Shown: piece by piece, positions 520 through 62,564 of the stretch
Position numbering within the stretch: the first letter of the stretch is position 1
How the letters are laid out: the number at the start of each line of letters is the position of its first letter
Notes under the pieces: model-generated
What the model was told of the DNA's origin: nothing
Seen by the model: only the letters and a program-made list of their open reading frames with translations
The model's database searches: none
Translations under genes and position numbers: made by a program
Assembly (NCBI GenBank): GCA_964017195.1
Contig: OZ024895.1
Coordinates: 28,388,875 to 28,452,874 of the forward strand
Direction of reading: 5' to 3'
Length of the DNA stretch: 64,000 nucleotides
Origin: Siderastrea radians
Lineage: Eukaryota > Cnidaria > Anthozoa > Scleractinia > Rhizangiidae

Positions 520-31777
<31,258 letters not shown>

Positions 31778-33660: not shown

Positions 33661-34440
33661 TCACTGTTTGATTGCAGCACCATATGAAGGATACAAATCC
33701 CCTGATCTCCCCTCCCTCGCTGCACTGTAGGGGGGAGGTGCGTCACTTACTCGCGTTGATTCAGGGTGGTCGGGTGGGGCAATGATGGCTTGTTGGTAGG
33801 AGGGTGGATCCTGTCCGAGGTAGGGTAGGGCGTCTTGTCTTGGGTCGAGTGGTTCTTGAGTCACGGAATCTGTCTCGTCACGACTACGTGACGAAGGACA
33901 CGTCACAACAAGGATACGCCTGCGGGCGCAGTAAATGTATAATATGATGATGACGACCAAAAAACCGATTGTGCCAAATACCGAGGCATGACAATGGTAG
34001 TCCTGACAATGGTAGTCATGACAATGGTAGTCCTCCTCTTCAAGGCAAAGTCCTTTACAACAACGTAAGCTTTTCCTTCCGCAATCCGAGTCCGTGTCAC
34101 AAGAATGTCCAAGACAATTAGTACGGGGTCGAGTGCACTGACCACTAAAGCAATCTTCAAACCACCCACAGTCTAAGTAGCTTGAACAATATTCATCTTT
34201 GCAGTTTTGGTAACATTCTTTATCCTCGATGCGGCAACAGTTGAAAAATGGACAGTCAGAGTTGCTGTAACAGGGCAATGGTTTGTGAACAGCGGCTGAA
34301 CATAACAAGAAAGCAATCAGTACAAGAAATAGCAAGTATTCTTTAACGTTGACGAAACATCGGAAATCTTTAAACGTCGAAATCGCAGCCATAGCTCTCC
34401 ATTCCAATTTTCTCTCTTGTAACAAATGACTCTTATGCAA
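33661..34440 (-). CDS. Shisa-like / STMC6-type single-pass membrane protein with PPxY tail
   Basis: Intronless, 259 residues from the first Met; Met17 is an alternative start close to the signal peptide. A hydrophobic signal segment spans about residues 35-49. The ectodomain (about 55-150) is Cys-rich, with two CC-containing modules (CYSNSDCPFFNCC and CDTDSDCGRKSLRCC). A DYHC[HQ] unit is triplicated at about 137-151. One transmembrane helix spans about 154-171, followed by basic CARRR. The tail has PPSY (212-215) and PPPY (235-238), ligands for WW domains such as those of NEDD4-type ubiquitin ligases. This layout matches the Shisa/WBP1/CYYR/VOPP superfamily; the exact member is not recognised. 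It converges with the SHIP gene. Residue-level orthology is not claimed. Confidence 0.8.
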   Translation of the reverse strand: MHKSHLLQERKLEWRAMAAISTFKDFRCFVNVKEYLLFLVLIAFLLCSAAVHKPLPCYSNSDCPFFNCCRIEDKECYQNCKDEYCSSYLDCGWFEDCFSGQCTRPRTNCLGHSCDTDSDCGRKSLRCCKGLCLEEEDYHCHDYHCQDYHCHASVFGTIGFLVVIIILYIYCARRRILVVTCPSSRSRDETDSVTQEPLDPRQDALPYLGQDPPSYQQAIIAPPDHPESTRVSDAPPPYSAAREGRSGDLYPSYGAAIKQ

Positions 34441-34818
34441 TTGTGCCTGAGAGGATAACTTCGTATGATGTGTCCTGTGCTAACCTTGTGATTGAAGGTG
34501 GTGTGGTCAAACTGTGTGACAGTTAACGCCTTCAACCCTATAAGCCCTGATATAAAAATGCATATTCTCCTTACTGTTCTCCATACATTTCTTATGGAAC
34601 TAGTAAGGAGAATTTGTCTATTTTGGAGAATAGAGAGGAAGAATAGAAAAGAATACTAGAAAAGAATAGTAAGGGGAATTTGTCTTATCCTTGGTCATCA
34701 CTTCCTTTTTTCTCATCACTTGATTATTTGTGAAATTTCCATCGTTCCCATGATTGTCATTCGATAATCGTTATGCTTTCTCACGTGTGTTCCTCTTGGT
34801 CTGCATTGACTATCTTTT

Positions 34819-43121: not shown

Positions 43122-43165
43122 ATGGCGGAGTATCTAGCGTCCATCTTTGGAACAGAGAAAGACAA
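43122..43165 (+). CDS. U2AF1: U2AF1 exon 1
   Basis: Encodes [14 protein letters not shown] plus two bases of Lys, identical to the human N-terminus. Donor GTAAGT. Confidence 0.97.
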
Positions 43166-46100
43166 GTAAGTGTATTCTGGATGAATTGTTATCGCTTGGG
43201 CGATTTTAAAAGGAGGTCGTGTTATTTTCCTAAAACGAACTTGCCATTATTTTGTTTACTACGTCTAAATGGATCCAAAATTCTAAAAGGCGTTATAAAA
43301 TATGGCTGCAAAATGTCAGAAGTTTATCTTAGATCTATTAAAACGTGAGATTATGAAGCCTTCTCGATTCGGTCTCTATCAGTATTTCATAAAATTAGAT
43401 GGCGAATGTCAAATGAAATTGTGGTTAGGTGCATGGAAGTGTAAGTTTTAATGCCAAATTTGATGACCCAGTGACGTCAACGATTCATTTATATCATCCC
43501 TTGACCATATGAAGAACTTGCTTTATTACCTTGCAAAAATTTACGCTAGCACAAAATAATGTAGGTACGTTTATGGATTTCATCGTTTGTTGTTATAAGC
43601 AATGTCTTGTGAGTAAAATCTCTGATAGAATATCTGCAAACCGATCGGCTCTTCTAACCATATTGAATGAAACAGCAAGCTGTTCATCAACCGACTGTTT
43701 ATTCTGGAAAAGGTTAATGAATTTTCCATCTGCTTAGGGTTAATTGCTCGTTCTACTTCAAAATTGGTGCTTGTCGCCATGGAGAAAGATGCTCAAGACT
43801 TCATAACAAGCCCACCTTTAGTCAAGTGAGTAACTTAACAAATAGACCTTTTGATGGTAACATCTGCCATCTTGAGAAAAGGGCAAACAGGATGCAAATA
43901 CAGTGTTTGTACGAACCGAGAGAAAACAAAAAAACAAAAAGCCAGTGTCAAATATTTTCAGTAATACAAGAAATCTTCACAAAATATGAACTGGAAACTT
44001 GAGATACAAAGTTAAAAATTATTCCCTTGAAATTTGATGGGTGAAGCTGCACTAGGAAGGACTTAATCGCATTTGAGGAGTGTAGCTTAACTTAAAAGGC
44101 TAAATCACATTTTTAGAGTTTTCATACATTTGTGTTAAAAACCTAGTCAAAGTCCACGGGAAGAGTTCACAGACAAATGATTTGAAAATTGAAAATGTGA
44201 TTATTTGCTTAAGGTGCAGTCTTGACATCACATTTAATTTGTTTTTTGTTATTGTTGTTGTTGTTGCTTTTTATTTCTTTTCCCTTTCAAGGGTCTATTT
44301 GTTCCATCCGTTTCTATACCACAAGGGTTCTTGTTTCAGTGTAAAATTTGACTTGGTTTAAGCTGGACAGAGCGTCTTATAAAAAGAATACTGTATCCAA
44401 AAGAGTAGCATAGCTTTCACAGAAGCAAAGACAATAATTAAAAATTGTCTTTTAATTATAGTTTTTATGGTGGTAGCATTTTTTAAGATGGGCCTGTAGG
44501 ACACCATCTTCTTGCAATATGGAATTTTCGTCTTAGTAGGTTGTTCAAGGTCACTGAATGTTTGATTGGCATGTTCATGATATATGGGGGTGAGCCGGGA
44601 CGGAAGAGGGCTGATGTTTTGACCGTGGTTTTCTTGGGGGCAGGGCTAGGTTAATACAATGCCTCAACCATGCTTATATTTGGGAGGTTTTAGGAGACAC
44701 TAGAAAGAGTTTTTCAGTTGATCAAAATTACATGCTTTAAAAATGGTGGCCCACAGGACTGTTATATGCAACAATTTTTAAGAGGGTTTTGGACATTATG
44801 TGGAACGAAATATGCCATTTAAAAAGTGAAAACAAGTGGGAAAGCTCTGGAAAGTTTGATTCAAATGGACTGGACATTGAAGGGCACAAAGCTTCTCAGA
44901 GGAATGAATTGATTGTTTCAAGATGGGATATTTCTTTTTCCTCAAAGAGATAGGCTTGTCTTAATGTCGGCAACTGATAAATGAGGCATATATTTCTGGC
45001 CTTGGAGTTCTTTAGGCTTTTTGTAGCCTTTTCTGGGTAAAACTGGAAACATGTCAAACTATGAGTTTGTTTGTTGTGACCATCTATTTGAAACATCTGT
45101 CACTGTTCTCATTCAGAATGTGCCATTTCATACATTTGAAATCTAGCTCATATAAAGAGGGAGAAAAAACGCTAGAATCTACACTAGGTTAATTTTGTCT
45201 AATCAAAACATTTAGCGGTGAAAACAAACTTAGTCTTCAATAAAATGCATTTGAGTTAATTTACAAGAGAAACCTCAAACCCGGGACATTTAGATCAGCT
45301 TTTGACAAGTAGTCATGCAAATATACAGGTAACACAATTAATTTTTATAAAATGCATACCACTTATCACTGCCTTGCAAAATACTGAAAGTGCGAGGGCT
45401 GGAGGAGAATTCAAAGGTTTAATTCTAGCAATCGACAGTTTGGTATGAAATGTGATTTTTTGGGTTTTCATTTTTGCGATATGTTTTTTTTCCTTTTTTG
45501 CAATTTCCGAAACAGATCAGGCAAAATTTATTTATATTTGATACCAAATAGAAAAAATCTGTGAATCTAGGTGCCCACAACTGTATAACTCCAGCTTGTG
45601 AGGGCCCCTTCTTGATAGACCTTGGGTTTTCTTGTTACTACTGTGTAGTAGCCTGCTGTTTGTATTGTTGCTGTAAAAAGTATACATCTAAGGCCTGTTT
45701 CAAACATCGTGCGACTGCCATGCCGAACTCAATTCATAAATTATAAATACATTACCAGTCATCAGAATACAATTTAAAAGTTGGCTAAACCGGCATTTTG
45801 GATTTATTCCTACAGCCGCCAGTCAGTGTTTTGTTTTTGGCAACAGCTGTTTTATTCGACTGAAGTAAATTCAACGTCTGAAACCAAGTGGTACGACAGT
45901 CGTGCTACAGTCGAGCCAGCTTAGCACGGCAGTAGAACGACCTTTGAAACAGGCCTAACTTTGATTAAAGTCAGCAACACACTAGGCAAAATCATGTGTT
46001 TGTCGGGCGTATTTTTGATTGCCAGCAAAAAATTGCCCAGTGTACCTGTTCCTGCAACAGCTATTTTTCCACAGATTTTGATCTCGGCCGAGAGCGATTA

Positions 46101-49100
46101 AAAATCGCCAGTATCTGACATGTCAGATATAAACGATTAAAATGCTCCACAATTCTGTAAAAATCACCAGCAATCGCCTGGTGTGTCCGCTCCCACTAAA
46201 ATGGTCAGTGATTGCTGATGATCACCTCGCCTGGTGTGTCACTCATTTAATATGAGGGGCTCTTTTCAGCAATCTTGATGTTTTGTGTGAGTCAAATTTG
46301 AAACTTGGAAAAATTTTAAGGTGGTCTCTTTTTTCAAGCTTCATGCGGGTAGAGTGGGTATCCTTTTTTATTCACAAATGAAGTTCTCAAAATAAGTTTT
46401 TTCTACAGTCCTTGTAATTGTAATCATGTAATTTATAATATGTGGTAAAATAAATAAATAAACAAATAAAATAAACAAATATGAATTTCCTTTTAAAGGG
46501 GCATAGTCACGCTGTTAGTTCACTTTAAAAATCCAAAATATGTCCTCACATCAATGAATGCCCACAAATAATGGTCTAGTTTTGTTACTAAAGATTGTAT
46601 TACTTCACTGAAACTATTTTTTGTCGTCTGTTGCTACGGATGGCAGGGATGGAAATGGATTGCAACTTGAAAAAATTAGGCTAAACTTTTCAAAATCTTC
46701 AAGTGTGTTGACATTAAATCAACATTAAATGGTCATGGATTGTTTTCTCTTAATGAAATTAAGTTAATCTGTTCCTTTAAATGTTCAAACACAATGATGG
46801 GCATGGATAAAGTTAGCTACCGATAATTTTAGCACAGTTTTGACCAAAAATCTACGAAATACTCGTGACTATGCCCCTTTAAAGATCGAATTTTCGTTTG
46901 TTTTCAGACTATTTTACTACAGAACATGTATCAGAACCCACAGAGTGCAGCACAGGTTGCTGATGGAACAAGTGAGTTTTATAGTTAAAAACAGTTTCTG
47001 GAATCCTCTGAAAACTTTTGTAATTGACCACTTGTAATTAACCTTTTCACTCCTAAAGTGGCCAAAGCAAAAAAATCACCAAAAATTCCAAATTTTGTTT
47101 GGTGAAATCGTAAAAAGTAAATAGACCCATGCAAAAGTTCTGCCAGCAAGGTTTCATTTGAATGGTAGTTAACACGATAGGATTTTGTCAAATCATCTCA
47201 CCATAACTTGTCAAATCATCTCACCATAACTTGGGCTAAGATTAAGAGGATTAAATCCAGTGCAATTTCTAATTTTCATGTCAAATTTGGAATTTGAAAG
47301 TGAATAAACAAACACAGTAATTGTACCATTAGTTTCCACTCAAACAAGGCCTGTATTTGTCAGTTTTAGAAGAAGTCAGGTACCAGGCGTGCGTTTCTCA
47401 AAAGCCCCGAAACTTTGTCAGGTCGATTTCGGGTACAATAATACACACTGCATCTTGTAAAAAAGAAGTTCCTAAGCATGAAACTTTGCTATAAGCTAAA
47501 TATTTCTTATCTTCGAGATGCCTAAAACAGGGTTCGTGCGGGTCCTGGAAATCCGGGAAAGTCCTGGAATTTTATTCTGGCATTTTCCAGGACTGGAAAG
47601 TCCTGGAAAATTAATGCAGGTTCTGGAAAGTCCTGGAAATCTATAAACTCTTATAATAAAGTTTTCTTTTAAAACAATTTTTTGCAGTATTATTTTTGGA
47701 TTTCTATTTTGTAAGGGATAATTGTTTCAATTATTGTGGATTTGGGAGTCTTGGAAAAATCTATCTGGGTCTTGAAAAAGTCATGGAAAAGTCATGGAAA
47801 ATTGTTTCTGAAAAAGGGTACGAACCCTGTAAAATAACAGCTTTGTATCCTAGAATGAGCTCTTCACATTTTTACAAATTGCTCTTCAGGGTCCAAAACT
47901 TTTCGGGGCTTTTGCAAAACACACGCCAGGTAACAATTTCCACTTGAATGTTGAAGTTTGATTTAACCAATTCTGGATTGAATCAATAAACTTTATTGAG
48001 CCAGTTGTTGGCTCTTCATAGAATACTCAGACTCCATTCCAGCTTGAAGCTTTTCTAAAATTCCCACTGAATGAATGTACAATGTAATCCCCCCATCCCT
48101 CCTATCCTCTGCTTATAAGCTCAATAGCTTATGGGTACACCAGTTTGGTCATACCCTCCTCCAGATGTAAAAAATGGAGTCTTACACTATGAAAATGTGT
48201 GAAAATGGATATGTGTATGGGTGAGAACAGAGATTTTCATCAAATCTGATGCCTTGATGTTACAGTGAAGACAACAGGTAAAAATGCATTGAAAGTTATC
48301 CGTTTTTAAACGAAAATGCAATGGTGATACGAAAAAGCTCACGTAAACAAAAATATTTGGCTTGGCTTTTGGGCCTTTGAAAATGGAAACTGTTGAAGAA
48401 GCATTTATGTAAATGGCGCCTAAAGGCAATTTTTGAAATAAAGTTACACTGAATTGTCTAACATGACAACTCACTACCAGAATATTTCAAAACCAAAAAA
48501 CCAAAAAACCCTTACCTAGCTGTACAATCTTAGTTTCTTAGACATGTAACAGGGATTTTACCCTCTGTTGAGTCTTTTTATTGTATTGAAACCAAACTTG
48601 TCACAGGTTCTGCTGCAGTTACTGCCAACTGGAAGTAATTGTCTGAATTTTCATGTTGTTTTTACTGTTTTCTTTTTTTTCTCACAGGTAGTGCAATCTC
48701 TGATGTAGAAGCACAGGAGCATTATGACAGATTTTTTGAGGTTTGTGTTATAATTTCTGATAATGTAAGGGACAATGTCACACCTTGAAACTGCACGTTG
48801 GATGCAATAAAATCAATATGGTTTTTCTTCTTAGTAATTTGTTTGAAACAGTACTCAAGCGCTCAAGAGATCACATACACCTGTACAAATGCTACACAGG
48901 GTGACACACCATATTTGATAATTATCACAACTGATCACGTTTTACTCTTGGTTGTTTTGTATCGTGTCAATAAATTTTTGAAAATTATTAGAATACAGGC
49001 CCCAGTTGTTCAAAAATTGGATAAATCTCTATCCAGTGGATAACACAATTGGTTTCCCTAACACTTATCCACTGGATAGTGATTTATCCGGTGGATAGCG

Positions 49101-52100
49101 CTACCCAACTTTTGAACAACTGTGGCCAGTTGTATAATTAGGCTTTTCTGTGATGGTAAAGAAATCCCAGTTTTAAAAAACAAAACCTGCTACATTTTGG
49201 CCAACACAAACAAAAACACAAACAGCATGATTCCAGGCATTACCCAAAATTTTTCATGACACAAAAGACTGCTAGTGCAACCAGATATTTCATAACGTTT
49301 TGGGAAGTAAAAAAGCCATTATTTCAAAAACAATGAACAAGCTGCCCAAGAGCTTCCTCAGAAAGATACGGTGATCTCCGTATAAACTCGGGCAAAATTG
49401 TGGAGTCAAACTAGAAAAGAGGAAAATCCTGTAAGCTTATGGCTTGATTTGCAGTGTTTTCTAATGCTGAAACGTGTTGGCCTGAGAAGATACTTTGTCC
49501 TCCTTGACTTTCACTGCTAGAGAAAGACATCTAAACTATACAACTCCCAAATTAAAAATTAAAATAACCAAAACAAAATCAAGACAAACAGATATTCATA
49601 ATCTAGTATTGTGACAAATCTTGGAAACTGTGGTCAACAAATTCTGTGCGATCACGTGGATTGTGCCCACTTTGACAGAGATGGCACAAAACTCGACAAA
49701 CAGGAGACAAACTTTTTTCAGGACCAGTAGTTTGTGCTGTGCATGTGCATGTTTATTTGAGGTAGCTTAGTCAAAGGAAATTACATTTAGGTGGATGATG
49801 TGTTAAAAAAATTTTTTTATTTATTTGTATAGGATGTTTTCCTGGAGCTGGAGGAGAAGGTAATGTTATTACTTAACTGCATTTTCTAACTACACTAACA
49901 ATTTAAAAATTTGCACTGTACATTGTACATTTGAGTGATAATTTATACACAGGAGTGTTGGATTTGTTTATTGAACTTCTTAATACACATACTTTGTACC
50001 ACTTGTCTTTTCCCTCCACCTTCTTGTAAGTTTTTCTTCTACATTCGTTTCAAATATTCAATAATATGAAAAGATCATATTAAACCTGCAGAAAAGAGAT
50101 TTTAAATGAATAGAAGATCACCCCAGATCATCACCAGTGGTGCACCAGTATCACAGAGTTAATGGGTTTGAATCCCACGCAAGCCTATGCAACTGCAAAA
50201 GTTGCCTACATAACTCCGATGATCTTCTGTTCATTTAAAACACATTCATTTTTCTCAACACATCTGATACATTAATGCACACAAACAGAGATGCTTCTTT
50301 ACTCATTTGTTAGTGACCTTTTGTTTTCATTATAGTATGGTGAAATTGAAGAAATGAATGTGTGCGACAATCTTGGAGACCACCTGGTCGGCAATGTCTA
50401 TGTTAAATTTCGCTATGAGGAAGATGCAGAAAAAGCTGTCAAGGACCTTGACAATCGCTGGTATAATGGTGAGGCGCCAATTCTGTTTTTGTTCTTTATT
50501 TAGGTAGTTGGATCGCTATTAATGCGTTCATTTTGAATAAAAATTGCTCAAAATGAAAAAAACCTGTTGAAGTAAAAATATATCAGATCGATACCTCTAA
50601 AGTTACGCTTCAAAAACTTAGATGTCTGTGGTGACAAATCCCATTTGAATTGCAGGCTCAAAAATTTTAGTTTGTCGTTTTACGGCTTTATCTTAAAAGT
50701 CAGATTGAAAAGAAATGTAGCAATTTATTTGTATACAGAAAAGGAAGAAACTCACGGGAGCCCGGACATGAAGCCCGCTTCTTTCTTCAGATATCATGTT
50801 TTAAAGAAAAAAACATGAGTCATCACTTTAAGCCACCGTAATATTGAGTATGACTCCGCGCTACCGTGAAAAGTTTATTTCGCCTCACAAGAAAAACCGG
50901 CGCAAATTTCAAGCAGATATGATAAATCTACGTCTTTAATCTTTAACCATCCCACCCACCTTTTTTACTTAAAAAAATGCAGTTTTTTTCCATTAAAGCG
51001 GTTTTTCAAGTGCTGTGTTGCCAAATGCCACTAAACTTTGCTACAAAAGCATTTTCTTACACTTTAGCTAGATTTTGAGTGAGCTTCTGTTGTAAATTAT
51101 ACAATATTTTGCTTTCACACATGTGCATAAGCCAAAATTTGCGGATTCATTTCCAATTTTTTTCTCGCTTCTTTTGCTTTCCTTTTTCTCTCCCTTTCTT
51201 TTCTCTTTATCTTCTACCCTTTATCCCCTTTCTATCCACAGGAAAAGTTTTGGCCTCAGCCCTTCTAAAAACCTGGAAATCGAACATTGATCAACCAGGT
51301 GACTTGGCCTATTTTACCACCATCTTTGCACCCAAAATTGGACATGTTTTTTCTGGTATAGCTCCGCCAGAATTTGGTCGATATTCAAAATGGACACATG
51401 CATGGATGGATCTGTCCTTGCTGTGTTAACTGCTTATCAAAACAATCTGATGACGTAAAAAATGATGACGTCACAAGTGGTTCAATGTCTCTGGGTCGAA
51501 AACGACCCAAAAATACGACTCTTTCTTGGTGGATTTTAAGGTCTAGGAAAGGCCAAAGATTTTAAAGAGTGGTCAACAACTGCTTTTAGAAATGTAATGC
51601 GAAAGTATTTCACGGTCCTTTAGTGGAATTTTGCCCGCAATGCTCACTTAATGATCACATGTTCGAATTTGAGTGAACGTAACATAACTGTCAACACGCG
51701 ATCATATCGTTTCAAATTTCACAAATCGAAGGAAAATAACACGCATAACAACCAACTTTATCCTTCATTTTCTCTGCTCCTAATAGGAATAAAGCTCTCA
51801 TCTTTTGCAGTTTTGTTAAACTTTGTATTATCTTTCAAGTAATCGAACTTTTGGATAGGGTTTATTTTTCACCTTCAACCAGTTCAAATACCTTAATACA
51901 TTCACTGCTAATTTGCAACTGGGGACCTTTAGAGGCAGTAGTCACAATTCCTATTTTTTTCCATTTGGGGGCTTGCTGTTTTGCCATTCTTCCAGTTTGG
52001 TGGTTATCAGGGGTGTACCTACCTGTACGCACGTACACATGTGCATACCCGAAAAATTGTCGAAGGTTAAAAGAAAGAGGCAAAACAAAACAGCAGAAAT

Positions 52101-55100
52101 ATAAAACAGATGGGAAATAAACGATGGTTGAAACAAGCACAATTGTTGCATCAACTTCCCCTATTTCATTGAAATATTAATTTTTCAAAACAAAAGCCAC
52201 CCTTTCTACGCAAATTCCAGAGAATCCACGAGATTGGTGGAATCAATATTGACACTAGTTATTTAGTGTAGGCAAAAGGGGGAAATTAGGGGGCTGAGAA
52301 TGACTAAGGCCCGGTTCAGATGCGAAACTTTTCAGCAGCCGGTCTTAATTCGAATTTAGGCTTCCCAAATTAGATTATAGATAGTAAGATTTTCAACGTC
52401 TATTATTCATCCGTTTTAAGGATCACCATTTCTCTGCATGATTGGTTTTGTTGTTCACGAAATGAAAGAGAAATTTTCTCACTGAGAAGCCATGATGGAC
52501 TGGAGATGGCAGCTCTTCTGTATCAACGCTGTTTATTGCCATATGTTTGAAAGGGAGAATTATGAAAGCTATTATTTCAACCGTACTCGCACAAAGACTA
52601 ACAAGCATAATTATATGATCAAGGAGGCTGCTGGTTATGGCGAGGGAAAAAGAGCAAAATCTCCTCTTTTTTTTCAAAACAGCACTATGTCGCAGGTTTG
52701 AGCCTCTGATGTATTTTACCTTTTGGATAATACCAAGTGTCGGAGTCTTCACTTTTATTAAACTTGTGTTTGAAACTCAAGTGGCAAAACTGTGGCAACG
52801 AGGCGTAATGGGTCCAGGGAAAAAATGTCTCGGGCCCTTTTTAAATCGTGGATGCAGTTTTTTGACCCTATTGTAGATTTTGAGAAAGGTCCTGTGAAGC
52901 CAGGTGTAATGACATCCATATAACAAAACTTTTAAAACTTAGTGGCAAACAGAATCGTTCATTCCAAGCAAAATTAAAAATAAAATTCTGATCTGTGTGC
53001 TGTAAAAATAAAAAAATGACACAATAGCATGGACTATCAATTTGGAAGAGAGCTTTGATAAGATTCAAGGAGCAACAGCTGTGTGATTTTCATAAACTAT
53101 AGTCCATAAAATAACTGAAAATTTACACTACCGTGTTAGAAGGATATTAATTGTAGACACATTTCCAGCCTCTAGCGAAGACCTAAATTTAAATTGTCCT
53201 GGGGGGAGCAGTGCCTTCTTACCCTCCTAGTATGCTCATGACCTAGTTGTCATTCCATCCATGGAAAATTGTGCGTACCTCTGCAAAAATCCTGGCTATG
53301 CCCCTGGTTATGTTGGTCTCTTACCCTAGAGTCTGTGCTTACTTGTTGGTGACTGTGCCTCTAAAAGTTAAATATGTGACAACCCTGCCTTGTAAACTAC
53401 ACATACATAGTTATTGCTAAGAGCAAAATTAATTGTAGGTGCACATACGTTAAACCTAATAGTGAGAGTACATTTATTGCATATGGAGACGTTTTTCACA
53501 ATATTTTACCAATACTTATTGGTTTTCTCCGTTTTCTTCCATAAGGCCAACCCATCTATGCTGAACTTTCACCAGTGACAGATTTCAGGTAAAAGTTCTC
53601 TTACTTTGGAAGCTGTTTTGGTTATTATAACAGGGCTTTCACTAATTTGTGAAGTGGCTGGGAAAATGGAAAAAGTAGTGGGAAAAAACAATTGTGTCAG
53701 TAGCAATGCCTTGTTTGTTTATCATAGTTGACAGGACTCAAAGTTGTAGGAGCAGTAGAAAATCTCCTTTCCCTGCCTTAATTGATGTTATAAGGAGCTA
53801 ACTGATTCAACTGGTGTAAAGTTAAAAACAATGAGTGCAATCTGTGTCTATCAAGTTTGTGTCACCAAATTCATTGTTCATGTACATGTACAGTACAGTA
53901 CAGTACTGGTCAAATGTAAGTTGACAGTCTCGGCTTGATCCTCTAAACTTGATTCTCACATCTCGAATGTCGAGACGTTTGAGTTTCGAGACGCAAGAAC
54001 TGAGGTTCAAGAATCGAGTATCAAGAATCGAGAAACATGGAGTTTTCTAATATGCAAACTCGAAAAGAACTTCGAGAAAACGATATATTTCTCGAAGGAT
54101 GAATAATAGCTGTTCGCATGCCGAGCTTAAGGGTTTAAAACATCGACTCTCAGCGCATACAATATCAACTTGCGTATACGCAGGAAGCAAACGAACGAAC
54201 GATGGCAATATATCCGGATATCTATAAGTCTTAAAATTCAGTAAATTGAGTCTGCTTGGTATTTGCGAATATGCCTCAAGTTCCCTTAACATATATACTG
54301 ACAGAAATCCATTTTCAAAAGATGGTGAACGTTTAAAAGCGACTAAAGAACCTCACTGTACTGTTGTTATCACACAGACAACAGCGTGTGCATGGCCTGG
54401 ATACACGTTCACCTATCAAAGCCCATCGCAGTTCAATCTTTAGTTTTCGCAAAAAGGTACAGATCTATATGTTAAAATTGCGTGTATCTTTGCGGATGGA
54501 AACCTATCTTTGGAAGTTAGTGAACGAACCGGCGAAACTTTGAGCGAATGCAAATTTACAAATCTGTCAAGCCGCGAAGCCCTTTTGCCATGCACGTGAA
54601 GCCGCATTTGTTTATTTGCCGAACTACACGAATAATACACAGAACTTGTCATAAAAAGAAACTTTTGTGAATGAAACTGATATAAAATATCACAGTTTCG
54701 AAGTCTGATACACATTGTCATGTCTTCAGCGATAAATAAGAAGTGATTTATTTTTTACCTGTGCACGTAAATTTGCATACCGTATTTTCTCGATTAAACT
54801 CCGGACCCCGAGTAAAGGCTGGGTTCAAATAAAATGCCGGGTCTACAGGGCCGAGTTTAAAATAAACGCCCCCAGCGTTTATTCGGGGTCCTGGCATTTA
54901 TTCGAGATGGGTATACTAAGTCAGGATTACTACATACTACACACTAGTATTCAAAGCAAACTACCTTTTACAAAGTACTTCTAACTATAACAGGTGAAAC
55001 AAACGACGCATAAGGTAATGTGTCAATCTCTTTTAAATTATGGTAACTTACAACCAAGCAAGGATCACCTCAAGGTTCTCTCCAGCGTATCAAGCGGTTC

Positions 55101-58100
55101 CTTGAATCGTTCCATAATGTTGCCTTTCTCGAAACTGATGGAGCAGGAAGCTCGCCACCACTAAACTTGTTCTAAATTGCTTGCACAGTACGTTTGCTGT
55201 CGAGCAGTTACCAACACACTTCTTCCGTGTTTTAGGGAGAAACATAACATTGAGAAGAGTTCAATCACTGTTCCTGCCAGTGGTGGTTATTTTTGATAAA
55301 TTATTTACTAGATTCACTTAGATGAGACAAAGTTGATCACATTTTTAACGTTTTCATTGAAATTTGGTTCTTGGTTCAATAAACCTCCAATACTGATATT
55401 GAAAAGTGGATGGCGGAAAAATGCATTTGATAAATAAACGCCGGGCCCCAAATAAATGCCGGGTTTGAATAAACGCCGCGTATATGATGCCGAGTTTTAA
55501 ATAAATGCCCCTGACATTTAATCGAGAAAATACGGTACGTCAAAAGCGAAATTTGAAACCTGACTGAATGCGTAACGTAACAATGCTTTTGATGCAACTC
55601 AGACTCAAACTCTCACTCTCGACAGACGTTTTGCCTTTCTGTTTCAACTGTAAATGTCTAAATTAAAAAATATAGGGAAATTTAGCATCGCTTATACAAA
55701 GCTTGTCACAACGCTGAGCCCATGAAATGCCTGTTTTACGCAACAACTGGGAAAAGTTTGAGTTGTAGTTTTCGAGCGATTTTTCGTCGAGCGTTTTGTC
55801 AAATAGCTATTTTAGGAATTATCGCAACAATTTCCGCAACATTAAAAACTTACAGTGAATAATTTGCCCTATGAGGAAAGGAGCAGTGAATTCTAAACAC
55901 TTGCACCTCATTTTTCGACACACGTGTTGGATCTGTAAACAGTAACGCTCGCGATTGACTTCGGTCTGCATTTGTCCGATTTATTTCTCGAGAGATCACT
56001 CAAGCGACAAGCTCAATAGTTTCTCGACTCGAAACTCGATTCTCAATCCTTGAAATTCTTGAAACCCGACTCGAGACTCGATTCTCGAAAATTTCAAGAC
56101 ACGAGGATCAAGACGCGAGGGACTGTCAACTTACATTTGGCCGGTACTGTATGTATATACTAGCACAGAGTTCTTCAAAGTTACTTCTCAGTGCAGTTTC
56201 ATGTCCGCCCTGCAGGATTAATATGTCAAGGACAGTGTTGATGTAATCAACATTTTGCCTGTACCCTTCATTATCACCATCATCGTCATTGTCATCATCA
56301 TCATCATCTGCCTGAGCGCATTCAGTCAGTCTTGATGAACTTTCTTTAGGCATGCTGTTGTTTCATAATGTTGAGGACCTCAGAACGTGACAGGCCAGTA
56401 GTGGTCTCCAGTTATTGGGTATACATTGTAATTATGTTTCAACTACTTAAATTCAATTCTATTCTATTTTGTTTTTAGGGAGGCATGCTGTAGACAGTAT
56501 GAAATGGGGTAAGTGATATATTTTCTACCCATCATTATCTTAGTGATTCCCATTCCCTGGCATTGACACTCTGTGGTTTTCAGTTTTCTGGTATACTCTC
56601 AGCAGTGTTCAGAGAGTTCAGTTAGGCCCCATCTACACTAGCAACTCCTCCACTCAATTTAAGTGGAAGCTGTCAAAAACTAATAAAAAAATTTGTACCT
56701 GGTGCAATGGTATGGTGCATGTCATTGTGAAAGTTGTGTATGATGCAAATTAGATATGTATGGGGAAATTGAGTTTATCCTCTCCCCTCCCCCCTCCCCC
56801 TCCCCCAACCAGTTATGAAAGTTAGTTCTCTTGGATAGGTTTGCAAAGAGACTAATGATATCACATAAAAATAAATTATGACAAAATATGTTAACTTGAA
56901 AAGTTCGGGTGTTTTAGTTTTGAAGGCTGAAAAGGTATGGGTCACACAAGTGTACGAGACATTTATGGGAGAAGACAACTAGTAATTCTAGCCCCCAACT
57001 ATCTGTACCTCTTCACCAAATCATAATGGCTTCTCCTTTACCTCTACTTTATTAGTTTGTTTACACATTCTCTTTGTGGTGATGAACACTGATGGTGGTT
57101 GTTTTTAATGTACCGGTCGTCAATAGTCCTAGCTTCTTTAAATCCTTGGCTAATCATAGGTTATGAAGTCAACACAAGCTTTAGAAATGACATCTTGTGT
57201 ACAGACTTGCATTGTTTGGTCAGATAGACTTGAAAGTAGACCCAAGTTGATCACTGGCCATTTCAGTACAACACATGCCCACAAAACCAAGATCAATCAA
57301 ATTATGTTGGGTGGCCAAATATTATTATATTAAATGGCTTGTGGGTGGATTTGAGCTCCAACAAAATGGTGGCAAGTACATGCACATAGGAATTTGTCAC
57401 TCCATTTGACCAAAGCTTGAAGATAAATCTACGTGTTCTACCTGTTTCAGTAGCGTATTAAAACAGGAGACTGTTCTGAAAGCTGGATTTGATGTCAGAC
57501 ATGAATGTTTTTGGTCATATGGCTTTCACTCAGCAATAATAATGATATTCTTGTTGCACCACACATTATTGTTGACTGGCATAGTCTCATTCCTGAGTGT
57601 CTCTGAAGTTTTACTTCATGAATATCAGTTAACAGCAAAGGAAGATTGTTTATTTGCAGGACATCTACAGGTGAAAGGCTGTCAGGAAGCATTATAGAGT
57701 CCTTCATATTGATGGGCAGTCTTTCATCTTTCAAATTCCTACGAATAAATGTTTTTCCTTTGCTGTTAACTAAGAGTCTTGACATTTCTTGCTGCTGTGG
57801 ACCCTCTGCTGTAGTGGCCATGAGCATTTACTCTTTTTGTAGCTGGGTGTTCGGTGTCAAAGTTAACTGTCACATGGATCTTGAAATGCAGTGTCCTACC
57901 TATCTAAGTCCTGTTTTGTTAGTAATTTGTTGAGCTGGATAGTCTCAACCATGTCCTATTGTAGGCATTATAAAGATAACACATAATTGTGCTACATGTT
58001 ATTGTAATTAATTTTTGTTAAACCCTCTGACTTGTGTGATCCCATCTGTTATGCAGTGAATGCACACGAGGAGGGTTTTGTAACTTCATGCATCTGAGAC

Positions 58101-61100
58101 CCATCTCCCGGGACAGCCGGTAAGCGCGACTGGACTATTCAGCTTAATCAGTTTAAAATTTAGTCTTCTTGTGTATTCCTAGAGAATGTACTCGTGGTGG
58201 GTTTTGTAACTTCATGCACATGCGGCCCATTTCAAGAGATTTGCGGTGAGTTGTTAGGCTTGATGCAAGGGTCAGGGGAGCCAGTGCTCTTGCCAGACCA
58301 AGAGAAAAGGGAGTCTCAATAGCAGCTGTAATTATGAATTCTTCTTATATCTTTAGTTTATTGTGATGGCCATTACCCTTACTCAGATTGCATCCTTTTT
58401 TGATTGTTCATTTGTTTTAGGTGGGGGGGGGGGGGCACACCCTCCATCCCTAAACTTACAATTATTAAAGTAATGTTTCTTGTGAGGTCAATAACGTGAG
58501 GACACAACAGTAAGTAGCAAGCTTTGCGACGTGGCGTAACTGTGATCCGTAAAAACTCAGCTGTTGCTTCATTTCTTCTGGAACATGCATACTTCAAATC
58601 ACTCACACAGTGCATAAGTATTTACATGCAATCATGCAATGTGGCTAATTACTTTGGGATCATCCTCAGTGCACTGTCTATAGTCCGGTTAGTTTTCTCG
58701 TTAACAGTTCCTGAGAGATCTTGTTTTCAATCGGCATTGTTCTTTGTTCCTGTAACAGTTGCCTGTCGGAGACGTGTCACTGAGCACTTCAGCTCACTGC
58801 CAATTCTCGTTTGTCACTTCTCGTTTGCCTTCTCATTTGCCTTCTCGTTTCACTTCTTCTTCTTCTCTCTTTGTCGTTTGCCAATTCTCGTTTGTTGTCG
58901 TTGTGCGATTTTCGCTTATTTTTCATGTCACCTAAGGATCATAACAAAAAACCCTTAAAAATAAATCCATTGATTGGACAAGTAAAGGTGTTTCTCTCCT
59001 TTTTGGTGTGGCACATATTCAGGGTGGTAATGCACCCTGCCTCGGCTTCATTGATGATAATTTGCTTTGGGTTATACATGTGTTTTTTAAGGATTTCTTG
59101 TGCTTTGCATTTTCCTCGGTTTTGTATGCAGCCCATCAAATATCACAAAGATTAATTTTAGTGTGTCAGTTTTACAGACTATTCCAAATTCTAAATCCAG
59201 TCAAAAATTAAAGGCGCTTGTGATTCTTTTAGTAAAATAATATTATTCTTCATCAAAATGGTGTGGCATTTCCTAGGAGTGTAAAAGTCCATGAAGATTT
59301 AGTTATCTTGCTGGAGGTCCTGGAAATTCTTGGAAATTTGTAAATACGTGCATGCAAAGTAGCATTTAAAAGCAAGCTAAAAACAGTACAGACACTGTCA
59401 AAGCATGCCTCAGCTAAGGTGGCACAGTGTGCGAACTTACCAAGTAAATATTATTGTTACAGGAAGTGAGGCGAAGGTAGAGAATGGTGAACTCTCCTTT
59501 TTTTCTTCTCTCTGGCAAGAACACTTGGTGTTGGGGTGAAATCAAGAGCATAAACTTGACGTGATACCCTTTTCGACATTTTCCTGGAGAGGAGGGAGGG
59601 AGGGCAAGGGAAGGGGGTGCTACTCTGGTGCAAAAAACTGTGTTTTCCTGGTACAAGTGGCGAACTTGCTAGGCAGGCAATCCCCAGTATTTTAAGTAGG
59701 AGGGAAACTGGATTTCAGAGGTGGGAAAAATTAAACTTACATGTAACCTTGGTTGATTTAAGCGCTTAAAGCAGCCAGGCAAAAACTTGTGTTCGTGGTC
59801 AGACCGTACTTAGTCTGGTCCACCATTTACCCTGGATGATGAGGTAGAAGCCAGTTTGTTGCTGTACTTTCTTCTTACACAGTTACCAAAAACATAGAAA
59901 AGTTGACAGAACAGAATAAGACTTTGGGCTTAGCCTGTAAAGGGTAGTAGATGTACCTTTTTGTAATCACGTTTGGGGTTGTTTCCAATTGATAATTTTC
60001 ATTGATAATTGCTTCTAATACAGGCGTGAGTTGTATGGAAGTAAGCGCCGCAGGAAAAGGTATGTTGTTTTCCTTGGTCTGTGTTTTTTCTTTCGTTTTT
60101 TCTTCTTCCTTCCTTCCTTTTTCTTGTTTTTTTTCCCTTGGAATCACCAAACTTCCAGTCTCTACAGAAATAGCACTTTCAAATTCCTAAGCTATTTGGA
60201 ATCTAACAGCCACAGATTTGTTTGTTGTGTAACCCTTGTTAATGAAGACAGAACGAGGTACTGAAACCCTGAAGAATCCACTGTGTGTGGATCATTTGGG
60301 TTGTAATCGGTGTGGGTTATAATATCTGGATTTGGACGGGTGAAATGGAAGAATATCTTCACTTAAAAGACATAGTTGTTCATAGTTACCTCAAAACTAA
60401 TGATGTGCATGGAACAACATTTTCCAAAGGTCAAAAGGGGGATGGTTCTAAGTGAATAAAATAATGAAGTGAAGTGTTTAGTTATAGAAAGTGTGCTTGG
60501 GGCAAGCTTTCAAAAAGCAAACAGTTGGCAAGAACGTTTGTAACACTGTGACGTGTTAGTGTGGGTTTTTAATTGAATCTTGTCTTGGGTTTTTAACTGA
60601 ATCTTGTTTGAAAGCTCAATAATGCGTTAACTTTCAAAGCGTCATATTGCTACGCACAAACATTTATGAGGAGAGCACTGTTCACTTTATTAACTTTCAG
60701 TCAATCAGCAAATTTAAAGTGCACAAACTTTTTAAATTGCCAACAGCGATCGTGTTGAGGGAAACAAGTTATTGGCACAGGTTCCCTTAAATAAGTTGGT
60801 TTCTCTTTAGCAAGTACAGAAATTCTTATTTATTTCAGAGGTGCTGGCGCAGCCGGTGCAAAAGAAGCATCTCCAGGGTTTGTACAAAAATGGGCACATC
60901 ACTTTTGTTATGTGAAAAACAGTGTACCACAAGTGTTTCACGCTCCTTCTTTAAAACAAAACAAAAAATAAAGAATGTGATCGGACACTGCAACGAAGGC
61001 TTAAGAATTCAAATTAATGGCTTGTCAAATGGAACAGAAACTCTTAGAACACACTGCCTTTCAAATAATAAAGAGATTAGTACTTAATGACATTTTTCTT

Positions 61101-62564
61101 GTTAAAAATAAGGTTGAGATTAACAGTAACCCTTCCTGAGATATCTAAGTAAATGCATATCTATTTATTGTGCTGATCCAGATGAGAAATAAGGAGTATT
61201 GACGCATGGAATCTCATGCTAGGTTAAGATTTACTTCAGTGCGAGATGGTTATTATTTTTTTATTGGGTATACATGACTTATTTTGATACTGGTAAGAGT
61301 TTCATTCCTGTTGAAGATTGCCTATCACATGAACCAGGTCGCTAATGCTACTAACGCTCACTAACATCAAAACTTGCAGTCATAGAATTTTTGCAGTCTT
61401 TATTTCCCTACCAGAATGCAAATTTTGATCCTATGCAGCCACCAAGCTAAACTTGCACCAACATGACATTTTGTACTGGTATTATAGGGAGTATCCTAGA
61501 AATTGGCTTTTGGGGTACGCTGGTCTTGGTTGGCAGCATAACCCGTTTTGAAGTCACTATTGTTTTCTTTTTCTGTTTTCTTTTTTTTCGGTAACATGTT
61601 TAAAAATCTTAATTTTCTCGACGTTGAAGTGCCTTGGCATAAAGGGCTGCATGAGCATTTCTAGCTGATTTGAAATCGTATTCTTTATTGTCAAACTTTG
61701 CTGTGTAAAATTTCAGGATGGGAGGTTTTCCCTCCAACTCAGCCAGAGGTAACAGCAAAGGACGAGGTCGCCCAACCATCCAAACATTGTCAGACATTTC
61801 CTATTAACTTAGTTCTAACGTGTAATTTTGTGGGTGTGACTAGAGCCACAACTAAATGAGTAAGCTTGAAATCTGTGGTATTTTAGTCTGCAGCTGCGAG
61901 ATTTGTTTCTTTAAAAGAGAAATATGAGACGCGTTCTACATCATACAAAAAGGAGAGAATGGCAAAACCAAGCACTGTTTGCGTAGGAGGTGCAACTGTG
62001 CAAATCTTCAATTGCCAAAAGCTCTTGCATTTTAACAATTTGAGGGGCACTCAACGAATCTGTTCCTTCAATTTTAAATTTTAATTGTTAAAATTCTTAA
62101 AAGTTTTATCGAATCCAAGCAAGCCTTGAAGACCCCTCGAAATTGAAATATGGCCAATCCATTGTTTTTCCCAATTTAATTTTCTCCTTCTCCTCCTCGA
62201 AAAATTCACAAGGATAATTACCGTCAAGACTTACGATATATTTCGCATCTTATAGGTTTTCCCATGTGAAACGATGACATCCCGAAATTAATGCTAATGT
62301 GACAATCACCTGCATTTGCACTTGTGCGCCAACTCATATTATCTAGATTTGGTGAAAAACACGTATGCAAAAAGTCAATCTATATTGTTTTCATCATTTT
62401 TTTCCATTTCCAGGTCTCGCTCGAACTCTCCTCCATACACTCGCCGTTCTCGGTCCAGATCTCCTCCCCGCCGTCGTTCCCGTTCTCCTCCCCGCCGGGA
62501 TAGATCGCGCTCACCTCGCCGTGACCGATCACCACGTGACCGTGACAGAAGAGGCCGCCACTGA
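43122..62564 (+). CDS. U2AF1: U2AF1: splicing factor U2AF 35 kDa subunit (complete, 12 exons used per transcript)
   Basis: U2AF35 pairs with U2AF65 and reads the AG of 3' splice sites in the nucleus. Exons: 43122-43165, 43738-43825, 46908-46971, 48688-48740, 49833-49859, 50336-50468, 53546-53588, 56479-56508, one of 58057-58119 or 58183-58245, 60024-60059, 60839-60877 and 62414-62564, giving 771 bp (256 residues plus stop). The order is [19 protein letters not shown] finger 1 (with the Ser equivalent to human S34), a U2AF-homology RRM ending [19 protein letters not shown] finger 2, a basic segment, then an RS tail. Length and order fit human U2AF1 (about 240 residues); the C-terminal tail differs. 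The start ATG context is AGCATGG. Exon 60839-60877 is Gly/Ala-rich and least conserved. Confidence 0.97.
43738..43825 (+). CDS. U2AF1: U2AF1 exon 2, CCCH zinc finger 1
   Basis: Between GCTTAG and GTGAGT. It encodes [18 protein letters not shown] then [11 protein letters not shown], with all four zinc ligands present. One conservative change from human (Glu for Asp). Confidence 0.97.
45692..45955. mobile_element. MITE with TAA target duplication (PIF/Harbinger-like)
   Basis: Inverted ends GGCCTGTTTCAAACATCGT / GGCCTGTTTCAAAGGTCGT, flanked by TAA at 45,689-45,691 and 45,956-45,958. Confidence 0.78.
45972..46246. mobile_element. MITE with ACACACTAGGC/ACACACCAGGC ends
   Basis: Left AACACACTAGGCAAAATCAT and right inverse GACACACCAGGCGAGGTGAT. 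It starts only 16 bp after the previous MITE. Confidence 0.65.
46497..46878. mobile_element. piggyBac-like MITE with TTAA target site
   Basis: Inverted ends AGGGGCATAGTCACG, flanked by TTAA at 46,493-46,496 and 46,879-46,882. It ends 29 bp before the acceptor of U2AF1 exon 3. Confidence 0.8.
46908..46971 (+). CDS. U2AF1: U2AF1 exon 3, RRM start
   Basis: Between TTTCAG and GTGAGT. It reads [20 protein letters not shown], matching human TIALLNIYRNPQNS. This corresponds to the exon that is duplicated (Ab/Ac) in vertebrates; no second copy was noticed here. Confidence 0.95.
47383..47930. mobile_element. TA-flanked MITE (CAGGCGTGCGTTT family), interrupted
   Basis: Ends CCAGGCGTGCGTTTCTCAAAA / CCTGGCGTGTGTTTTGCAAAA, with TA on both sides. 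It is disrupted by the element at 47,528-47,829; the intact relative is at 31,273-31,491. Confidence 0.75.
47528..47829. mobile_element. Nested CCTGGAAA-rich element with TAAAA target duplication
   Basis: Inverted ends CAGGGTTCGTGCGG / CAGGGTTCGTACCC. The interior is rich in TCCTGGAAAG. TAAAA occurs on both sides and only once at the unoccupied relative (31,397-31,401). Confidence 0.8.
48688..48740 (+). CDS. U2AF1: U2AF1 exon 4
   Basis: Between TCACAG and GTTTGT. It encodes [13 protein letters not shown] (human DVEMQEHYDEFFE). Confidence 0.95.
48996..49132. mobile_element. TA-flanked MITE (AGTTGTTCAAAA / ATCCACTGGATA family)
   Basis: Inverted CAGTTGTTCAAAA(A/G)TTGG at both ends, with internal TATCCAGTGGATA palindromes. 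Confidence 0.78.
49833..49859 (+). CDS. U2AF1: U2AF1 exon 5, 27-bp exon
   Basis: Between GTATAG and GTAATG. It encodes DVFLELEEK (human EVFTEMEEK), phase 0 on both sides. Confidence 0.95.
50097..50247. mobile_element. Short inverted-repeat element
   Basis: TTTAAATGAATAGAAGATCA and inverse TTTAAATGAACAGAAGATCA bound the segment. A GGTTTGAATCC inside resembles a tRNA B box with one mismatch; no matching A box is convincing. Confidence 0.6.
50336..50468 (+). CDS. U2AF1: U2AF1 exon 6, U2AF-homology RRM
   Basis: Between TTATAG and GTGAGG. It contains [20 protein letters not shown] and NRWYNG. The conserved Trp is the U2AF65-contacting residue. Confidence 0.97.
50469..53545 (+). other. Large U2AF1 intron, no clear feature
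   Basis: 3.1 kb with several short open frames and C/T-rich tracts. No conserved protein or bounded repeat recognised. Confidence 0.5.
53546..53588 (+). CDS. U2AF1: U2AF1 exon 7, end of RRM
   Basis: Between CATAAG and GTAAAA. It encodes [14 protein letters not shown] and two bases of Arg. The acceptor is AAG, not the more usual CAG/TAG. Confidence 0.95.
53901..56149. mobile_element. 2.25-kb TA-flanked non-autonomous element
   Basis: Inverted ends CAGTACTGGTCAAATGTAAG / CAGTACCGGCCAAATGTAAG continue through TTGACAGTC, with TA on both sides. Subterminal TCGAGACTCGATTCTCGAA-like motifs occur at both ends. No transposase frame was seen. It contains the nested element at 54,780-55,535. Confidence 0.82.
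54780..55535. mobile_element. Nested TA-flanked element (CCGTATTTTCTCGATTAAA family)
   Basis: Inverted ends CCGTATTTTCTCGATTAAA with TA on both sides. Near each end, AATAAACGCC/AATAAATGCC motifs are repeated. It is inserted within 53,901-56,149. Confidence 0.8.
56479..56508 (+). CDS. U2AF1: U2AF1 exon 8, start of zinc finger 2
   Basis: Between TTTTAG and GTAAGT. It encodes EACCRQYEM, including the residue equivalent to human Q157 and the first zinc-ligand Cys of finger 2. It ends in phase 2 (GG of Gly). Confidence 0.95.
56509..58056 (+). other. U2AF1 intron upstream of the duplicated exons
   Basis: Nothing bounded recognised. There is a C-rich CCCTCCCC tract near 56,785. Control elements for exon choice could lie here but none is evident by eye. 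Confidence 0.4.
58057..58119 (+). CDS. U2AF1: U2AF1 exon 9a, alternative zinc finger 2 exon
   Basis: Between TATGCAG and GTAAGC, 63 bp, phase 2 to 2. It encodes [20 protein letters not shown], with three zinc ligands (Cys, Cys, His). Paired with exon 9b 63 bp downstream. Confidence 0.93.
58183..58245 (+). CDS. U2AF1: U2AF1 exon 9b, alternative zinc finger 2 exon
   Basis: Between TTCCTAG and GTGAGT, 63 bp, phase 2 to 2. It encodes [20 protein letters not shown]. Relative to 9a there are 17 nucleotide differences but only Leu to Met and Ser to Leu. The SRDLR end is closer to human SRELR. Confidence 0.93.
60024..60059 (+). CDS. U2AF1: U2AF1 exon 10, basic segment
   Basis: Between TACAG and GTATGT. 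It encodes [11 protein letters not shown] (human RELYGRRRKKH). Confidence 0.93.
60839..60877 (+). CDS. U2AF1: U2AF1 exon 11, Gly/Ala segment
   Basis: Between TTTCAG and GTTTGT, 39 bp, phase 2 to 2. It encodes [12 protein letters not shown]. It is skippable in frame. Supported by phase and splice sites more than by homology. Confidence 0.7.
61609..61797 (-). other. Antisense 62-codon open frame in last U2AF1 intron
   Basis: A complete frame, with an in-frame TAG one codon before the ATG. The protein-like composition includes [20 protein letters not shown]. No family is recognised. It could be a small gene, a retrocopy fragment or chance. Confidence 0.2.
62414..62564 (+). CDS. U2AF1: U2AF1 terminal exon, RS domain and stop
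   Basis: Starts after TTTCCAG. It encodes [20 protein letters not shown], then repeated [11 protein letters not shown] blocks ending RRGRH and TGA. A typical Arg/Ser tail. Confidence 0.93.

What the first reader, a model, noticed from the sequence alone, without database searches (positions are those of the whole stretch)
58057..58245. Tandem, apparently mutually exclusive exons for the second zinc finger of U2AF35
Two 63-bp exons with identical phases and good splice sites lie back to back. Each supplies three of the four zinc ligands of CCCH finger 2. They differ at 17 of 63 bases, about 13 of these silent, and at only two residues (Leu/Met after the ligand His, Ser/Leu in SRDxR). That pattern indicates an old duplication with both copies under purifying selection. 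The intervening intron is 63 bp, so splicing 9a to 9b may be sterically hindered, which would enforce either/or use. Vertebrate U2AF1 also has an exclusive exon pair (Ab/Ac), but in the RRM; this is a different place in the same protein. The finger contacts the 3' splice site AG region, so the choice could tune splice-site preference across the transcriptome.
Basis: partly seen in the sequence, partly recalled or inferred. Interest (0 to 1): 0.92.

Follow-up and report, generated by a model that had tools for sequence, protein, structure and literature searches.

The report
Coral U2AF35 zinc-finger exon pair
A stony coral's gene for the core splicing factor U2AF35 carries two alternative copies of the exon that builds most of its second zinc finger, and protein models from other reef corals contain one copy or the other, so corals appear to have kept an old two-way switch inside a protein that helps define where introns end.

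Summary
The window holds a complete stony-coral U2AF1 (U2AF35) gene with two 63-nt, same-phase exons, 9a 58057-58119 and 9b 58183-58245, separated by a 63-nt intron. Each supplies C, C and H of CCCH finger 2. They differ at 17 bases: 13 synonymous (saturated), 4 nonsynonymous, giving two residue changes (L/M at 174, S/L at 181); 0 of 20,000 neutral simulations reach that.

New: public proteins of Acropora palmata, Orbicella faveolata and Porites harrisoni come in two forms that differ only inside this exon and match 9a and 9b. Acropora and Orbicella belong to different stony-coral suborders. None of 295 retrieved homologues joins both exons. The assembly has one U2AF1 locus.

Best explanation: an ancient tandem exon duplication spliced either/or, helped by an intron too short for efficient 9a-9b joining. 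RNA usage, regulation and function were not testable. The kind is known (vertebrate U2AF1 exons Ab/3); this site and lineage I did not find described.

The parts
43122..43165 (+). U2AF1 exon 1 (start codon at 43122)
43738..43825 (+). U2AF1 exon 2, CCCH zinc finger 1
46908..46971 (+). U2AF1 exon 3, start of the UHM (RRM)
48688..48740 (+). U2AF1 exon 4, UHM
49833..49859 (+). U2AF1 exon 5 (27 nt), UHM helix
50336..50468 (+). U2AF1 exon 6, UHM
53546..53588 (+). U2AF1 exon 7
56479..56508 (+). U2AF1 exon 8, [10 protein letters not shown]: first zinc ligand of finger 2 and residues 156/157
58057..58119 (+). alternative exon 9a, [22 protein letters not shown]163, C169, H173 of finger 2 and start of helix alpha6 with Ser181
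   Evidence: peptide found in Acropora palmata, Orbicella faveolata, Porites lutea, Porites harrisoni and one unnamed 1,687-nt contig
58120..58182 (+). 63-nt intervening intron; A at positions 28, 36, 37 and 43 are the best branch-point candidates
58183..58245 (+). alternative exon 9b, [21 protein letters not shown]: same ligands, Met174 and Leu181
   Evidence: identical peptide in Porites harrisoni, near-identical in other corals
60024..60059 (+). U2AF1 exon 10, [12 protein letters not shown], rest of helix alpha6
60839..60877 (+). probable optional 39-nt exon, Gly/Ala-rich linker ([13 protein letters not shown])
   Evidence: Oculina patagonica isoforms with and without such a segment
62414..62564 (+). 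U2AF1 last coding exon, RS domain and stop codon

Best explanation
The two exons are an ancient tandem duplication of the exon for most of zinc finger 2 and the first turn of helix alpha6 of the single U2AF1 gene of a stony coral. The transcript is spliced 8-9a-10 or 8-9b-10, giving two U2AF35 proteins that differ at residues 174 (Leu/Met) and 181 (Ser/Leu). Joining 9a to 9b is disfavoured because the 63-nt intron cannot hold a branch point far enough from the 9a 5' splice site; which exon wins is probably set by competition between a weaker and a stronger 3' splice site. Reading of the AG is probably common to both proteins; the difference is expected in the finger-2/alpha6 platform that meets the UHM and the large subunit, so the isoforms should differ in pairing with U2AF2 or in stability, with knock-on effects on weak 3' splice sites. 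Shown: gene, exon pair, selection, either/or protein models in other corals, single locus. Inferred: either/or splicing in this species, steric enforcement, alpha6/U2AF2 as the point of action.
For: Complete gene model with frame-consistent GT-AG introns. Saturated synonymous but low nonsynonymous divergence, neutral simulation 0 of 20,000. Acropora is in suborder Refertina and Orbicella in Vacatina; a paper passage puts the complex/robust split at ~415 Mya (PMC6214176), and the 9a tail [10 protein letters not shown] is identical across them. An unnamed 1,687-nt contig encodes a complete 258-aa 9a-type protein, which needs spliced RNA (or a retrocopy), since the gene here spans 19 kb (inference). 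No protein with both exons, a 9a-9b junction or a clean exon-9 skip among 295. No branch-point candidate more than 43 nt from the 5' splice site except two A's at the very 3' end. The intron is 63 nt while the other introns of the gene in the model are 476 to 3,082 nt. One U2AF1 locus in the assembly.
Against: No RNA reads of this species could be mapped. The paired proteins of other corals are gene predictions, and the two Porites harrisoni proteins come from different contigs, so they may be alternative annotation choices or haplotypes. Only 9b-type was listed for Oculina (P0005, P0010) and Pocillopora (P0009); the database is clustered at 90%, so this is not evidence of absence, but it is not support either. 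Acropora cervicornis P0111 lacks exons 8 and 9 altogether. Double inclusion and double skipping would both stay in frame, so no frameshift or NMD filters them. A human 56-nt intron with 27-nt spacing is spliced. Absolute lists were capped (best 120 of 4,192, 990 and 1,545 hits).
Confidence: 0.78

Rival explanations
1. Only one exon (most likely 9b) is used to a functional degree and the other is a minor or dead copy.
For: 9b has the more pyrimidine-rich 3' splice site (0.76 against 0.65 over 17 nt) and 9a begins with T; Oculina and Pocillopora were listed only with 9b-type.
Against: 9a is open, keeps all ligands and RNA-contacting residues, and its tail is identical across two coral suborders; its 5' splice site matches the consensus at 7 of 9 positions against 6 for 9b; a neutral copy would have about 10.7 residue changes.
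Confidence: 0.1
2. Both exons are often included together, giving a U2AF35 with a 21-residue duplicated partial finger, or both are skipped.
For: All four combinations keep the reading frame; short introns can be spliced; P0111 of Acropora cervicornis lacks exons 8-9.
Against: No such double-inclusion protein and no clean exon-9 skip among 295, including a search made with the 9a+9b protein as query; the intron is under the ~50-nt spacing needed for efficient splicing.
Confidence: 0.08
3. The exon choice changes AG or flanking-base preference directly through altered RNA contacts of finger 2.
For: Finger 2 does contact -1G and +1G in the fission-yeast structure; vertebrate U2AF1 isoforms are reported to differ in 3' splice-site preference although their differences lie in the UHM (abstract).
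Against: R165, C169, N170 and F171 (contacting residues by the +6 offset) are encoded identically by 9a and 9b, and 155/156 lie in the common exon 8. Residues 174 and 181 are not among the contacts named in the two of six parts of PMC7505975 that I read.
Confidence: 0.2
4. Assembly artefact: haplotype or collapsed copy placed in tandem.
For: Tandem duplications are a common assembly error (general knowledge).
Against: 27% divergence with a strongly synonymous pattern, unrelated flanking introns, and both peptides found in other coral genera.
Confidence: 0.02

Closest known systems
Vertebrate U2AF1 tandem exons 3 and Ab (U2AF35a/U2AF35b)
   Same: Same gene; tandem duplicated, equal-length exons, either/or use, few residue differences, kept over long evolution (PMC5224494).
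   Different: 67 nt each, so double inclusion or skipping shifts the frame and is removed by NMD; located in the UHM with seven residue differences. Here 63 nt, frame-neutral, finger 2/alpha6, two differences.
OGDH mutually exclusive exons 4a/4b enforced by branch points close to the 5' splice site
   Same: Short intervening intron with branch-point spacing under ~50 nt as the proposed enforcing mechanism (PMC7969005 passages).
   Different: There branch points were mapped experimentally; here they are only predicted, and the intron is shorter.
Molluscan U2AF1 alternative UHM alpha2 segments (seen here, not recalled from print)
   Same: Another pair of alternative segments in the same gene: both forms in 7 of the molluscan species examined.
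   Different: In the UHM helix, not finger 2; the two segments are much more diverged; I did not look at genomic DNA.
Dscam-type mutually exclusive exon clusters
   Same: Tandem exons, one chosen (named in papers).
   Different: Many copies and long-range RNA docking there; two copies here, and no docker-selector element was identified.

Membership tests
U2AF1 / U2AF35 | CCCH finger - UHM/RRM - CCCH finger - RS domain order | tested here: met
   Pfam zf-CCCH (two stretches) and RRM_1 above cut-off for both isoforms; RS tail in the last exon; fission-yeast U2AF23 chain 4yh8_A E 6.6e-78.
U2AF1 / U2AF35 | RNA-contacting and zinc-binding residues of finger 2 kept | tested here: met
   C163, R165, C169, N170, F171, H173 in both exons; contacts taken from PMC7505975.
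Tandem duplicated exon pair | Adjacent homologous exons of equal length and phase with own splice sites | tested here: met
Tandem duplicated exon pair | Both copies under purifying selection | tested here: met
   13 synonymous to 4 nonsynonymous changes; neutral simulation.
Mutually exclusive exons | Transcripts carry exactly one of the two | tested here: inconclusive
   Protein models only: either/or pairs in other corals, no double inclusion among 295; no RNA data for this species.
Mutually exclusive exons | Enforcing mechanism: too short 5'ss-branch-point distance | tested here: inconclusive
   Predicted spacing at most 43 nt; branch points not mapped; counter-example of a spliced 56-nt intron.
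Mutually exclusive exons | Enforcing mechanism: frameshift/NMD of double inclusion | tested here: not met
   All four combinations are in frame.
Vertebrate U2AF1 exon 3/Ab pair | Duplicated exon lies in the UHM, 67 nt | tested here: not met
   Exons 3-6 here are single in the window; the pair is in finger 2 and 63 nt. Not orthologous to the vertebrate pair.

The most novel reading that the evidence does not exclude
Stony corals have carried, since before the split of their two main clades (put at ~415 Mya in one paper), a dedicated isoform switch in finger 2/helix alpha6 of the core 3'-splice-site factor. Isoform 9a carries Ser181 where 285 of 293 parsed homologues have Leu (Ser only in five coral 9a-type proteins), next to Arg residues, so it could be a phosphorylation-sensitive, U2AF2-weakened form that shifts use of weak 3' splice sites across the transcriptome by tissue, stage or stress, and perhaps regulates its own exon choice through the weaker 9a 3' splice site.
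Probability: 0.3. Interest if true: 0.8.

Novelty: new variant of a known kind. Interest (0 to 1): 0.62.

Why it matters
U2AF35 defines the 3' splice site in most animals, and single-residue changes in its fingers alter splicing in human cancers. If corals run two versions differing at two residues of the finger-2/alpha6 platform, the pair is a natural experiment on what that platform does beyond reading AG. With the vertebrate pair and the molluscan segments seen here, it suggests that the same core factor was given a tandem-exon switch more than once, at different sites, a pattern that can be tested with existing coral RNA-seq.

Tried and rejected
Structure prediction of the Acropora palmata 9a-type and 9b-type proteins with 28-row alignments gave weak models (mean pLDDT 53.6 and 54.3; finger regions under 50); both show a helix at 179-186, but no difference between isoforms can be read from them. 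No fold search was made on them.

Docker-selector RNA structure: the repeat scan of 56509-60023 gave 7 inverted-repeat pairs; only a 66-nt pair (74% complementary, 57616-57782, in the intron upstream of 9a) stands out, and nothing pairs one site with alternatives at both exons. Not pursued.

A bacterial-type promoter/terminator scan of 58000-58300 was run and is not informative for an animal gene.

A possible further coding exon near 61719 was considered and dropped because no GT donor there kept the frame into the RS exon (by eye). The first exon-10 end (60060) was one base long and broke the RS frame; one search corrects it.

A deeper origin of the duplication (octocoral Dendronephthya has 9b-like MRPISRELR, sea anemones Actinia and Actinostola have LRPISKDVR) was considered; too few residues and no genomic DNA, so left open.

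None listed a paper that I could tell describes a finger-2 exon pair in U2AF1; this covers only, judged from titles and abstract starts, in an open-licence library.
Full report
What is there. The + strand from 43122 to 62564 carries a complete U2AF1 gene (exon coordinates under parts). The protein is 243 aa without the optional exon, matches Pfam zf-CCCH (two stretches) and RRM_1, and aligns to fission-yeast U2AF23 from residue 1 to 191 (E 6.6e-78). The best database hits are stony corals (Acropora, Orbicella, Oculina, Porites, Pocillopora) at 89-97% identity, with one oribatid-mite protein among the first ten.

The exon pair. Exons 9a (58057-58119) and 9b (58183-58245) are each 63 nt, both start after codon position 2 and end after codon position 2, and carry C163, C169 and H173; the first ligand of finger 2 lies in exon 8. 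They differ at 17 of 63 bases: 13 synonymous and 4 nonsynonymous changes by Nei-Gojobori, pS 0.87 (beyond correction), dN 0.083. The repeat unit is 70 nt including both borders, with no similarity reported beyond it in the introns. Under neutrality at least 13 of 17 synonymous changes has P = 4e-6; of 20,000 simulated copies none had 2 or fewer residue changes, the mean was 10.7, and 8,175 had a stop. No third copy and no second copy of any other U2AF1 exon was found in the window.

One gene. The window's own assembly (804,772,777 bases, 439 contigs) has one DNA match to 9a (a DNA query for 9b did not complete) and 8 matches to the protein: 7 fall in this gene and 1 is a weak match to the finger-1 region with two stops. 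So both isoforms would have to come from this locus.

Other corals. Acropora palmata X2/X1, Orbicella faveolata X3/X4 and Porites harrisoni P0014/P0012 are pairs of proteins that differ at 3, 4 and 2 residues, all within exon 9, one of each 9a-type ([10 protein letters not shown]) and one 9b-type (MRPISRELRR or [10 protein letters not shown]). 9a-type was also found in Porites lutea and in an unnamed 1,687-nt contig; 9b-type in Oculina, Pocillopora (variant MRPISGILRR), the octocoral Dendronephthya, and two unnamed sequences. Orbicella is in suborder Vacatina, Acropora in Refertina; [quoted passage not shown] That the suborders correspond to these clades is recalled. The simplest reading is that the pair predates living Scleractinia.

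Against this stand Acropora cervicornis P0111, which lacks exons 8 and 9, and the fact that gene predictions are not reads. All four combinations are in frame, so, unlike the vertebrate 67-nt pair (PMC5224494, introduction read), a frameshift cannot police the choice.

Mechanism of exclusion. The intervening intron is 63 nt; the other introns of the model run from 476 to 3,082 nt. Its A residues, other than A56 and A62 at the extreme 3' end, lie at most 43 nt from the 5' splice site (sequence). Passages of PMC5740500, PMC7969005 and PMC6692369 give ~50 nt as the spacing needed for efficient assembly. PMC8363638 (passages) reports a human 56-nt intron with 27-nt spacing that is spliced, so the short intron should disfavour rather than forbid 9a-9b joining. 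The 3' splice site of 9a is less pyrimidine-rich than that of 9b (0.65 against 0.76; other exons 0.53-0.94) and 9a starts with T; 5' splice sites match CAGGTAAGT at 7 (9a) and 6 (9b) of 9 (others 5-8). Differential regulation through these 3' sites is my inference.

What the switch changes. PMC7505975 (parts 1 and 2 of 6 read) names finger-2 contacts in fission yeast C149, R150, R159, C163, N164, F165; with the +6 offset these are 155, 156 (exon 8) and 165, 169, 170, 171 (exon 9), identical in 9a and 9b. The differing residues are 174 and 181. [quoted passage not shown] Leu181 is matched by Leu in fission yeast and found in 285 of 293 parsed homologues; the rest are Ser in the five coral 9a-type proteins, Val in 2 and Pro in 1 (2 of 295 were unparsed, and one of them, Actinostola, also has Val). 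Met174 was found in 9 of 293. I therefore expect the switch to act on the finger/UHM/U2AF2 platform rather than on AG reading. Models of both isoforms were too weak to test this.

Known or new. Vertebrate U2AF1 tandem exons are well described and their isoforms are reported to be mTOR-controlled with different 3' splice-site preferences (PMC6821156, abstract). The coral isoforms already stand in public databases as predicted proteins. I found no paper describing a finger-2 pair in ten searches listed under Tried and rejected. So: new variant of a known kind.

Noticed in passing
P0018, P0033, P0042 and other molluscan hits: Molluscan U2AF1 proteins come with two alternative UHM helix segments (such as VDDVQGQQDFDDFFEEVFTELEDK or MDDTELQQFYDEFFEEVYVELE): both forms in Crassostrea angulata, C. 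virginica, Pecten maximus, Gigantopelta aegis, Mercenaria mercenaria, Octopus sinensis and Sinanodonta woodiana. Predicted proteins of Magallana gigas (P0019) and Mytilus (P0046, P0056) carry both in a row. This looks like a further, separate alternative-exon pair in U2AF1.
   Followed up: partly
60839-60877: Optional 39-nt exon for a Gly/Ala-rich linker before the RS domain; Oculina patagonica isoforms X1 and X3 differ by such a segment, so the gene could make 2 x 2 isoforms.
   Followed up: partly
5160-5371 and 5482-6726: 51-bp satellite in two arrays (4.1 and 24.4 copies) whose units are reverse complements of each other; it creates long spurious open frames.
   Followed up: no
57616-57681 and 57717-57782: 66-nt inverted repeat (74% complementary, 35-nt loop) in the intron just upstream of exon 9a; mobile-element remnant or a possible structural regulator.
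   Followed up: no
33661-34479, - strand: 272-codon open frame with a cysteine-rich stretch, a hydrophobic segment and PPxY-like motifs; no significant Pfam match (best E 0.61).
   Followed up: partly
P0111: Acropora cervicornis U2AF1 model lacks exons 8 and 9; possibly an annotation that failed at the tandem exons.
   Followed up: no
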